Source: an uncultured Selenomonadales bacterium
GTDB lineage: Bacteria; Bacillota; Negativicutes; Selenomonadales; Selenomonadaceae
Direction: 5' to 3'
Assembly (NCBI GenBank): GCA_946411735.1
Contig: CAMKFB010000014.1
Location: 1 to 42,271, forward strand
DNA: 42,271 nucleotides
Part shown: positions 6,465 through 19,149 of the stretch, piece after piece
How positions within the stretch are numbered: position 1 is the stretch's first letter
Layout: every line of letters starts with the position of its first letter
Translations under genes and position numbers: made by a program
Notes under the pieces: generated by a model
What the model saw: the letters and a program-made list of their open reading frames with translations, nothing else
Database searches by the model: none
Told to the model about the DNA's origin: nothing

Positions 6465-6494
6465 TTGACACGGGGATAAGGATCGATTTACAAT
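6465..6494 (+). promoter_or_regulatory. Sigma-70-type promoter for the flagellin gene
   Basis: TTGACA (6465-6470), an 18-base spacer and TACAAT (6489-6494) point at the flagellin gene 77 bases on. A second TATAAT lies at 6503-6508 without a matching -35. I see no clear sigma-28 (FliA) promoter, which is the usual one for flagellin, so housekeeping-sigma transcription plus leader control is the simplest reading. Confidence 0.6.
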
Positions 6495-6500
6495 ACACGT

Positions 6501-6570
6501 GATATAATATAAAAGGATTAGACTGGGTTTAGTAGAAGGATTTACTACAAACACGGAGGTGTGAACTCAA
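6501..6570 (+). promoter_or_regulatory. Flagellin leader with repeated GGA sites, CsrA-like control region
   Basis: The expected leader holds three GGA motifs: AAGGATT at 6513-6519, AAGGATT again at 6536-6542, and the Shine-Dalgarno CGGAGG at 6554-6559. The middle one sits in the loop (6535-6542) of a hairpin whose arms are 6527-6534 and 6543-6552, with two bases bulged. CsrA is known to bind GGA in hairpin loops together with a second site over the ribosome site, as in the flagellin leader of Bacillus subtilis. Regulation here is inferred; no csrA or fliW gene is in the window. Confidence 0.5.
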
Positions 6571-9500
6571 ATGGCAATGAAGGTTTTGCGGAACGATCTG
6601 ACGACGCTCGCGCTCAACGCGTTCGACCGAAGCGTCAAAACGATCGGCAAGGCGTTGGCTCGAGTCGCAAGCGGGCAAAAAATCGTCAGCGCCGCGGAGG
6701 ATGCATCGCAATTTGCGGTGTCCGAACGAATGCGGCATATGATCCGCGATCTCGATCGCTCATCGGAGAACATTCAAAACGAGTCGACGATGCTCAAAAT
6801 CGCCGAAGGCGCGATCTCCTCGACGCTCGATATCGTCAATCACATGCGCGAGAAGGCAACGCAGGCCGCCGACGTCAATATGACCGACACGGAGCGGCGG
6901 GCGCTGCAAAAGGAAATGGACACGCTCATCGATCAGATCGATCAAAATTCGCGGGTTCAATTCAACAACAAGTTCCTGCTCGACGGCGGTTCTTCGCCGA
7001 TGTACTCGAACAAGTACAACAAGCAGGAGCTGGTGGCGCGCGCGCTCAACTCGTCGTGGATCAAGGATTCGGTCGCGGTCATCAAAGACACGTACGGCTT
7101 GGACTTCCAAAGCAGCACGTCGTCGATTCACAAGATGAACATTTACCTTGATGAAGACGGCGATTCGGCGGTGACGACGAGCATTTCCGCTTCGGGCGAT
7201 GCGATCGATCTGCATTTCAATACGAGTCTTTTCGATGAAAATTACATGCGCAATCCGAACGGCGTTTCGACCGACGAGGAGGCGCATTTCTTGGATCGGC
7301 AGATTGCGCGGAGCATGGCGGATGCCGTGTTCATGGCGAATTTCAAAAACTACGAGCAGTTGCAGGCGGATAATCCGGACATTCTTGAGGGCTTGCGTAC
7401 GGCGCTCGACGGCGGAGACGACGATGGCGATCTCAGCACGGGCTTTAAGATGATTCGTCTGATGGCGAATAAGTCTCAGCTGACGGTGTCGGATTTCGCC
7501 CACGAATTTACGCGGACGCTTGCTGACGGTTGGAGCGTTGACGCCGCGATCCAGCATTCGACGCATTATATATTCAACAGTGCTGCCGATGTTCAGGCGC
7601 GCGCCGACGCCCTTACCGACGAGGCTGATCTCGACAGAGAGGCGGGCATTCGTCTTACCACACACGATATCGGCTCGATCAACGGCGAGGACGCCGGACG
7701 CGGCGGCGATAAGAGTGCTTACACGGCAATTCGCGAGACAAGCACGCCTTCCAACTGGAAACTGCCGTCGAAACCGACGACTTTCAGCGCGGGGCTCGAG
7801 ATCACTTGGAAGAATGAAGAAGTGCTTGCCGATACCGACGGCGGCGGCGGCTTCCAATTCCAAATCGGCGCGAACGCTTACGACAAGATGAATGTCGGCT
7901 TGTTCAATATGTCGGCGCGGGCGCTCGGGCTCATCGACGAAGAAGGTCAGACGCTCCAAATCTCTTCGCGCGGCAACGCGTTGGAGGCAGTCAACGTGCT
8001 CGATCGCTTGGTGAATACCCTGTTGCAACATCAGGCGGATATCGGAGCGCTGCACATGCGCGTCGATTTCACGACGAACAATCTCGAGACGAGCAGCAAC
8101 AATATACAGGCGGCGGAGTCGATCATTCGCGACGCGGATATGGCCAAGGAAATGGTCGAGATCAGCCGCGGGCGGGCGTTGGAGAATGCGTCGCAATCGG
8201 TGTTGGCTCAAGCAAATCAGAACTCGGAAAAAGTTTTGCAGGTGCTGTCGAATGACTCCGCGCCAATCGAAGTGCACGCCAATACGATTCAAGCCAAGCA
8301 CACCTACGACGAGAATTTGTCGGAGGTCGGCAAGGATCTCAAGCAGATTTCGAGCGGCGAGAAGATCACCGATCCGACGGACGGCTCTTCGCCGTATCAG
8401 ATGGGCGAGAATGTGGAAGCGAAGTTGCGCGTGCTCGAGCGCGACAGTCAAAATGTACAGGACGGCTCGACGATCCTCAAGGTGGCGCAATCGACGCTCG
8501 AGACGGTTGTCGACGATTTGAGATCGTTGAGGGAGCTTGCGGTCGCTGCCGCCAACGGTCATAACTCCGACGTCGATCGTCGCATTTTGCAGAAGGATTT
8601 CGATCAAATTCGCGACAAGATCAACGATTTGGTTTTGCAGACGACCTACAACGGCAAGGAACTGGTCGGCGGGCGCTATCAGAGGTTCTACACGACGTTC
8701 GACAGCGCCTCGAACACCGCCAAGATCAACGAAAATCTGGGCGTGTCGATACAGCACGGCTCGGAATCGGGGCAATCGGTGAACTTCTATATCAGCGATC
8801 TGCAGACGAAGAATCTCGGCGGCTCGAATGTTCGTAAGGAGAATCTCGACAAGCTGCTCAACAGTCGGGAGTTCGTCAACAGTCGGAACGCGGCGGAGCT
8901 GACGAATTTGACGGAGTTGCAATCGCAGTTGGAGCAGATGCGCGAGGACACGAGTGTGTTGCTTCGCGATGAGAATTTGCAGCAGCGGTTGCAAGGCGTG
9001 TTCGATCGATTTGAGAGTCTCGACAGTCTTGAGGAGGGCGAGACGCCCAACATTCGGCACGCGGTGATGAATGCATATCTCAACACCGGAAGCGTCAGCG
9101 ATACGGTTGAGAATTTGGATCGCTACGAATTTTTGAAGCCGATGCTTGAGGAGGCGATGGTGGTCGATGCGTTGAACACTCGTCTCGATACGGAAGGCAA
9201 TGTGATTGAGACGGACGCGGACGCGGAGCCGATTGCCGATCTCGAGTCGGTGGAAGTTTTGAAGGACGCGGCGGGCAAATCGTTGGACGACGTGACGATC
9301 GACAACATTCACAACGCGAACGTGGCGATGCACATAGTGTCGAGCGCGTTTGACCAGGCGTTGAGCGAAGCGGCGACATTGGGGGCGTCCGTGGCGCGGT
9401 TGGATTACACGAGCCAAAACATCTCCGCGCAGATCACGAACACGGAAGAGATGAACTCGACGATCCGCGATGCGGATATGGCCAAGTCGATGTCGAAATA

Positions 9501-9591
9501 CATGCGGGATCGGATGCTGACGGATGCGTCGCAGGCAATGTTGTCGCACGCGATCAAAGACCCGCTGATGGTGCTGACGTTTGCACAATGA
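6571..9591 (+). CDS. Tandem double flagellin (two complete flagellin modules in one chain)
   Basis: This 1006-residue protein is about twice or more the length of an ordinary flagellin. Module 1 has a flagellin N-terminal helical domain at about 1-145 (RVASGQKIVSAAEDASQFAV, then LKIAEGAISSTLDIVNHM), a variable region to about 455, and a C-terminal domain ending near 562 (IIRDADMAKEM, ASQSVLAQANQ, EKVLQVL). Module 2 begins again near 568 with ISSGEKITDPTDGSSPY, ILKVAQSTLETVVDD and LRSLRELAVAAANGHNSD, a variable part from about 705, and a second C-terminal domain at 925-1006 (STIRDADMAKSM, DASQAMLSHA). There is no stop codon between them. The start at 6571 has GGAGGT ten bases upstream, and a strong terminator follows. 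It would be a filament subunit; whether it forms the main filament or a special segment is unknown. No other flagellar gene is in the window. Confidence 0.93.
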   Translation: MAMKVLRNDLTTLALNAFDRSVKTIGKALARVASGQKIVSAAEDASQFAVSERMRHMIRDLDRSSENIQNESTMLKIAEGAISSTLDIVNHMREKATQAADVNMTDTERRALQKEMDTLIDQIDQNSRVQFNNKFLLDGGSSPMYSNKYNKQELVARALNSSWIKDSVAVIKDTYGLDFQSSTSSIHKMNIYLDEDGDSAVTTSISASGDAIDLHFNTSLFDENYMRNPNGVSTDEEAHFLDRQIARSMADAVFMANFKNYEQLQADNPDILEGLRTALDGGDDDGDLSTGFKMIRLMANKSQLTVSDFAHEFTRTLADGWSVDAAIQHSTHYIFNSAADVQARADALTDEADLDREAGIRLTTHDIGSINGEDAGRGGDKSAYTAIRETSTPSNWKLPSKPTTFSAGLEITWKNEEVLADTDGGGGFQFQIGANAYDKMNVGLFNMSARALGLIDEEGQTLQISSRGNALEAVNVLDRLVNTLLQHQADIGALHMRVDFTTNNLETSSNNIQAAESIIRDADMAKEMVEISRGRALENASQSVLAQANQNSEKVLQVLSNDSAPIEVHANTIQAKHTYDENLSEVGKDLKQISSGEKITDPTDGSSPYQMGENVEAKLRVLERDSQNVQDGSTILKVAQSTLETVVDDLRSLRELAVAAANGHNSDVDRRILQKDFDQIRDKINDLVLQTTYNGKELVGGRYQRFYTTFDSASNTAKINENLGVSIQHGSESGQSVNFYISDLQTKNLGGSNVRKENLDKLLNSREFVNSRNAAELTNLTELQSQLEQMREDTSVLLRDENLQQRLQGVFDRFESLDSLEEGETPNIRHAVMNAYLNTGSVSDTVENLDRYEFLKPMLEEAMVVDALNTRLDTEGNVIETDADAEPIADLESVEVLKDAAGKSLDDVTIDNIHNANVAMHIVSSAFDQALSEAATLGASVARLDYTSQNISAQITNTEEMNSTIRDADMAKSMSKYMRDRMLTDASQAMLSHAIKDPLMVLTFAQ

Positions 9592-9614: not shown

Positions 9615-9638
9615 GGGAGGCAATCGCCTCCCTTTTTT
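9615..9638. terminator. Bidirectional terminator between flagellin and glyA
   Basis: GGGAGGC (9615-9621), loop AATC, GCCTCCC (9626-9632) and six T (9633-9638) form a textbook plus-strand terminator for the flagellin gene. A run of seven A at 9604-9610 gives a T run on the other strand, so it may also end the convergent glyA operon. Confidence 0.9.
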
Positions 9639-19058: not shown

Positions 19059-19149
19059 GGAGAGTTGTCCGAGTGGTTTAAGGAGCACGACTGGAAATCG
19101 TGTGTGCGTTGATAGCGTACCGAGGGTTCGAATCCCTTGCTCTCCGCCA
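19059..19149 (+). tRNA. tRNA-Ser (anticodon GGA), reads UCC and UCU
   Basis: The acceptor arms GGAGAGT (19059-19065) and GCTCTCC (19139-19145) pair fully with one G-T wobble. They are followed by discriminator G and an encoded CCA (19147-19149). The anticodon loop CTGGAAA gives GGA. The long variable arm expected for serine tRNA and the T-loop GGTTCGAATCC are present. At 91 bases the length fits a class II tRNA. Confidence 0.97.

What the first reader, a model, noticed from the sequence alone, without database searches (positions are those of the whole stretch)
6571..9591. One gene encodes two complete flagellins in tandem
The chain has the order N-domain, variable, C-domain, N-domain, variable, C-domain. 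Each flagellin normally has one N and one C domain, which pair as coiled coils in the filament. Here the C1 end (SEKVLQVL, about residue 560) leads straight into a second N-domain with its own SSGEKI and LRELAVAAANG motifs. A covalent dimer would constrain filament assembly, secretion and chaperone use: there are two FliS/FliW-type binding regions per chain, and an internal C1-N2 linker where the filament core should be. The two modules differ clearly in sequence, so this is an old fusion, not a recent duplication. The only flagellin in view being double makes a new filament architecture possible.
Basis: partly seen in the sequence, partly recalled or inferred. Interest (0 to 1): 0.82.

Follow-up and report, generated by a model that had tools for sequence, protein, structure and literature searches.

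The report
Two flagellins fused in one chain
One gene in a bacterium related to rumen Selenomonadaceae encodes two whole flagellins joined end to end, a layout conserved in related species, and the chain would likely lock two neighbouring building blocks of the flagellum together while carrying a protease-like domain without its catalytic residues.

Summary
In detail: window 6571-9591 (+) is one open frame of 1006 aa with the order Flagellin_N, C, N, C. It is not an assembly join: nine other full-length proteins share it at 61-95% identity, one relative keeps three upstream genes, and a distant tandem is named Selenomonas sp. KH1T6. The C1-N2 junction is the most conserved 60-residue stretch (0.91 against 0.68 overall; dN/dS 0.04 against 0.23). 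It is not the genome's only flagellin: frames of 512, 484, 1045 and about 297 aa lie elsewhere. Module 1 descends from a flagellinolysin (protease flagellin); the HExxH site is absent in 10 of 10 close members, while 5 of 5 wider tandems that reach it keep it. Module 2 is another flagellin lineage; internal duplication is rejected. In related genomes a flagellinolysin gene and the next flagellin gene share a frame with one stop between at 5 of 10 junctions read, a plausible route to fusion. Likely role, untested: a minor covalent subunit pair in a mixed filament.

The parts
6571..9591 (+). tandem flagellin gene, 1006 aa (N1-V1-C1-N2-V2-C2)
6571..6990 (+). N1: first Flagellin_N region (residues 1-140)
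6991..7977 (+). V1: first variable region (residues 141-469), homologous to the flagellinolysin peptidase insert
7309..7323 (+). residues 247-251 (RSMAD), which align with the HExxH site of flagellinolysins
   Evidence: residue numbers counted
7978..8247 (+). C1: first Flagellin_C region (residues 470-559)
8188..8370 (+). C1-N2 junction, residues 540-600, most conserved stretch of the protein
   Evidence: dN/dS 0.039
8275..8682 (+). N2: second Flagellin_N region (residues 569-704)
8683..9312 (+). V2: second variable region (residues 705-914), no family match over a curated cut-off
   Evidence: one search found only a tandem protein (P0011) and P0217, which begins inside N2
9313..9579 (+). C2: second Flagellin_C region (residues 915-1003)
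6555..6559 (+). GGAGG, ribosome-binding-like site, 11 bases before the ATG
   Evidence: sequence
6465..6494 (+). sigma-70-like promoter match, 11 of 12
   Evidence: 2 sites found where shuffles give 1.6, so not above chance
9615..9632 (+). terminator-like stem and T run after the gene
   Evidence: 4 found where shuffles give 3.5, so not above chance

Best explanation
The gene encodes one 1006-residue chain of two flagellins end to end, the first with a protease-like variable domain that lacks the catalytic residues, and the chain is predicted to enter the flagellar filament as a covalently linked pair of neighbouring subunits. Shown: the domain order, its conservation, the homology of V1 to flagellinolysins, the absence of HExxH, the separate ancestry of the two modules, and further flagellins, FliS and FliD in the same genome. 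Inferred: the fusion arose by loss of the stop codon between a flagellinolysin gene and the next in-frame flagellin gene; the protease then decayed in this branch; the linked pair is a minor subunit that occupies two lattice sites among ordinary flagellins, the short junction bridging two neighbours in the core, with V1 and V2 displayed side by side on the surface. Untested: secretion, assembly, position and stoichiometry.
For: N-C-N-C in 14 of the 216 listed proteins, with 6 more partial tandems. The junction is the most conserved 60-residue window; the two inner D0 ends (C1 and N2, 0.87 each) are more conserved than the two outer ones (N1 0.73, C2 0.69). dN/dS 0.039 at the junction against 0.234 for the whole gene, one pair of species. 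All four D0 ends are still recognised by HMMs of ordinary flagellins. Synteny with the relative L061. V1 homology E 6e-56; site absent in 10 of 10, against HExxH in 5 of 5 wider tandems that reach it and in the 4 stand-alone same-genus relatives examined. Flagellinolysin gene and next flagellin in frame with a single stop between at 5 of 10 junctions read; N2 of P0122-P0125 groups with such downstream genes (95/86). Other flagellins, FliS and FliD present.
Against: The D0 ends score well under ordinary flagellins: mean bits N1 37.5, N2 26.4 against 67.5; C1 44.4, C2 30.9 against 77.0 (the ordinary set overlaps the sequences that trained the model), so the protein may have left the normal lattice. 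The full-length AlphaFold model is poor (mean pLDDT 54), so pairing of N1 with C1 is not shown. No promoter signal above chance. The architecture is rare: 3 of 66 genomes of the genus, many of them incomplete. The order of events is not settled: two N-domain trees disagree on whether all N2 share one origin.
Confidence: 0.5

Rival explanations
1. Secreted or specialised flagellin-like protein: it is exported by the flagellar system but sits at one special place (base, junction or tip) or is shed, and is not a lattice subunit of the filament.
For: All four D0 ends are diverged from ordinary flagellins; the genome has other flagellins able to build a filament; the gene is on another contig than FliS and the main FliD match, at unknown distance.
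Against: The N and C helical regions of both modules are kept and under purifying selection (dN/dS 0.10-0.23).
Confidence: 0.22
2. Nested fold: N1 pairs with C2 as the core of one lattice site, and C1-N2 form an internal coiled-coil hairpin that is part of a giant outer domain.
For: Topologically possible; N1 and C2 are the true chain ends; the AlphaFold model was too poor to decide.
Against: The two modules descend from different flagellin lineages, so N1-C1 and N2-C2 are the inherited pairs; C1 keeps the higher D0 score of the two C ends.
Confidence: 0.1
3. Precursor: the chain is cut at the conserved junction into two flagellins after translation or export.
For: The junction is extremely conserved, as a processing site could be.
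Against: The old start region of N2 is gone: no MAM-type start stands there in any of the 20 tandems listed (a Met of any kind in the stretch examined is in 4 of 20), so the second half was not kept as an independent unit. I recall no flagellin that is matured this way.
Confidence: 0.12
4. Assembly artefact or a lost stop in one genome.
For: The genome is a draft of 135 contigs.
Against: The same open frame in nine other full-length proteins, in loci of other genomes (L061, L102) and in a protein named Selenomonas sp. KH1T6.
Confidence: 0.01

Closest known systems
Flagellinolysin (proteolytic flagellin; NCBIfam NF033876; PMC5595980 and PMC7643111, passages read)
   Same: V1 is homologous to the peptidase insert; wider tandem relatives P0122 and P0123 score over the NCBIfam cut-off (319.3 and 225.8 against 205).
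   Different: The window protein lacks HExxH and scores 121.7, under the cut-off; a second flagellin is fused on. PMC5595980 says that all its flagellinolysins keep the zinc-binding histidines (passage).
Giant flagellins over 1000 aa (PMC6248924, abstract end and passages read)
   Same: Chain of more than 1000 residues.
   Different: Those grew by duplicating a domain inside the variable region and adding an insert (passages); here whole N-V-C modules follow each other.
Tandem flagellin genes as separate genes (for example S. maltophilia fliC1-3, PMC8998449, search listing and start of abstract only)
   Same: Flagellin genes side by side.
   Different: Separate proteins; here one chain without a stop.
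Ordinary flagellin (Pfam PF00669 + PF00700)
   Same: Each module has the N and C helical regions.
   Different: Two of each in one chain.

Membership tests
Flagellin | Flagellin_N and Flagellin_C regions over Pfam cut-off | tested here: met
   142.7 and 102.5 bits for the whole protein against 26.6 and 23, two stretches each; each single stretch is over the cut-off too
Flagellin | one N and one C region per chain | tested here: not met
   two of each
Flagellin | assembles into a filament | not testable with these tools
   needs biochemistry or cryo-EM
Flagellinolysin | HExxH zinc site and third-ligand Glu | tested here: not met
   R-S-M-A-D at the site and Thr where the third-ligand Glu aligns; both absent in 10 of 10 members of the close family
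Flagellinolysin | NCBIfam NF033876 over its curated cut-off | tested here: not met
   121.7 bits against 205
Flagellinolysin | homologous insert domain in the variable region | tested here: met
   HMM of 21 active inserts (3 loci held twice, wider tandems included) hits V1 at E 6e-56; its stretch 23-146, outside the part shared with ordinary flagellins, scores 81.9 bits
Flagellinolysin | gluzincin-type fold of the insert | tested here: inconclusive
Giant flagellin | more than 1000 aa | tested here: met
   1006 aa
Giant flagellin | one N and one C domain around an enlarged variable region | tested here: not met
   N-C-N-C
FlgL (hook-associated protein 3) | NCBIfam TIGR02550 over cut-off | tested here: not met
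   123.9 bits over several stretches against 127.2; the wider tandems P0122 and P0123 do pass it (173.9 and 160.8), also over several stretches, which makes the test weak for double chains

The most novel reading that the evidence does not exclude
A family of covalent flagellin dimers staples pairs of lattice sites in the flagellar filament and so sets a protease, or here a dead pseudo-protease, in fixed one-to-one register beside an exchangeable partner domain (helical, VWA or beta-helix) on the filament surface: a modular display filament with internal covalent bonds.
Probability: 0.35. Interest if true: 0.85.

Novelty: new variant of a known kind. Interest (0 to 1): 0.7.

Why it matters
Flagellins are taken to add to the filament one by one, each with free ends in the core. 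A conserved two-in-one chain makes it testable whether export, the FliD cap and the lattice tolerate, or use, a covalent link between neighbours. The wider family joins protease flagellins with an intact HExxH motif to partners such as a VWA domain, which would give surface functions in fixed ratio, and the single-stop gene pairs show a plausible path from two genes to one.

Full report
What is there. The open frame 6571-9591 (+) encodes 1006 aa. Pfam reports Flagellin_N and Flagellin_C in two stretches each. HMMs built here give N 1-140, C 470-559, N 569-704, C 915-1003. C1 runs into N2 with a very short spacer: in the full-length model, whose confidence is low, residues 561-569 are the only break between helices 467-560 and 570-594.

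Not the only flagellin. The same genome (2.42 Mb, 135 contigs) has seven Flagellin_N and six Flagellin_C places. Besides the tandem these are N-C proteins of 512 aa (C10), 484 aa (C20), 1045 aa (C12) and about 297 aa (C6), and an N-only frame of 502 aa on C15. The last lies beside a frame that I recognise from memory as FlgK-like, and is probably FlgL. One FliS match and the main FliD_C match lie on C15; FliD_C has a second, weak match on C4.

Real and conserved. Two protein searches, each listing its best 120 of 418 and 5381 hits, together with the window's own gave 216 different proteins. Of these 196 were N-C, 14 N-C-N-C, and 6 partial tandems (4 C-N-C, 1 C-N, 1 N-C-N). The close family P0001-P0010 is full length, the nine others 61-95% identical to the window. 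The wider family P0122-P0126 includes P0123, named Selenomonas sp. KH1T6 by one source and S. ruminantium by another; KH1T6 is a taxon of Selenomonadaceae. L061, from a roe deer rumen genome record of a Selenomonadaceae bacterium, holds a 63% identical tandem, with three upstream genes of the window, the LytR-CpsA-Psr gene among them, in the same order. Its contig has the same length and the same tandem frame as G067:C114, and G067 is placed in the window's genus. An uninterrupted full-length junction was listed for 3 of 66 genomes of the genus (G000, G032, G067); for 5 of 380 of the class (those, G273, and G227 cut by its contig end; at most 7 candidates scored per genome); and, at E 1e-50, for the window's genome alone among 398 of the phylum.

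Constraint. Among the ten full-length members residues 540-599 are the most conserved 60-residue window (mean pairwise identity 0.91; whole protein 0.68). Between the window and L061, dN/dS is 0.234 for the whole gene and 0.039 for residues 540-600, with dS 0.9-1.5 by region, which is near saturation. So the junction is kept, not merely tolerated. The four D0 ends are recognised, but all score below ordinary flagellins, which fits adaptation to the linked state, or departure from the normal lattice.

Origin of the fusion. N1 and N2 of the close family are not sisters, nor are C1 and C2. Of the 11 genomes in which one search lists a full junction broken by stops, I read 9, ten junctions in all. 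At all ten the next ATG is in the frame of the gene before. At five there is one single stop codon between (G252 first pair, G258, G259, G249, G291; G258 and G259 are identical in the stretch shown); at the other five there are two or more. In all five single-stop pairs the upstream gene carries the flagellinolysin insert and HExxH; in G249 the downstream gene does too. A further pair, in G032, has a long spacer with many stops. N2 of P0122-P0125 groups with the genes downstream of flagellinolysins in G252, G258 and G259 (95/86). N1 of P0126, which keeps HExxH, is sister to N1 of the window's clade (100/99 in both trees), but its N2 moves between trees. So either module 2 was exchanged after one fusion, or fusions happened more than once. 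Second modules differ: VWA in P0014 and P0125, a weak beta-helix match in P0123, an unnamed region in the window protein.

How it likely works (inferred). The frame has one start after a ribosome-binding-like site, and the chain is most likely exported whole. As other flagellins, FliS and FliD are present, the likeliest use is as a minor subunit that fills two lattice sites, the conserved junction bridging neighbours in the core, with the pseudo-protease V1 beside V2 outside. Which sites, how many copies and whether it assembles at all are unknown.

Literature. The listings showed no report of two whole flagellins in one natural chain. Giant flagellins arose by duplication inside the variable region (passages of PMC6248924). 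A find for fusion, tandem, two flagellin, duplicat, double and Selenomonas in PMC7018530 gave no occurrence. Selenomonas does not occur in PMC5595980 or PMC7643111. Most subscription papers are not in the library.

Noticed in passing
P0065, P0071, P0073, P0076, P0123 (less cleanly P0020, P0038, P0042); L100, L101, L105, L107: The flagellinolysin insert is re-ordered: the second part of the HMM (about 210-330) matches before the first (about 21-212), as a circular permutation inside the flagellin would give. In four genome loci two separate matches and HExxH at residue 375-412 fit the same.
   Followed up: partly
P0020, P0042, P0104, P0105: Single flagellins whose variable region matches the flagellinolysin insert but lacks HExxH: other likely pseudo-protease flagellins.
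   Followed up: partly
L102:1283-8387: G273 array: single flagellinolysin, then a tandem with HExxH, then another flagellin.
   Followed up: no
L053:6116-9256: Flagellin with an extra lysine-rich tail of about 90 residues after its C domain, directly before the next flagellin frame.
   Followed up: no
L016:7797-10934: 1045-aa flagellin of the window's own genome with one N and one C domain and a very long variable region.
   Followed up: no
L018:2978-5042: Two neighbouring frames, which look like glycosyltransferases from memory, with the same first 70 residues.
   Followed up: no
window 19059-19149: tRNA-Ser (gga), the only RNA family match at gathering score in the window.
   Followed up: no
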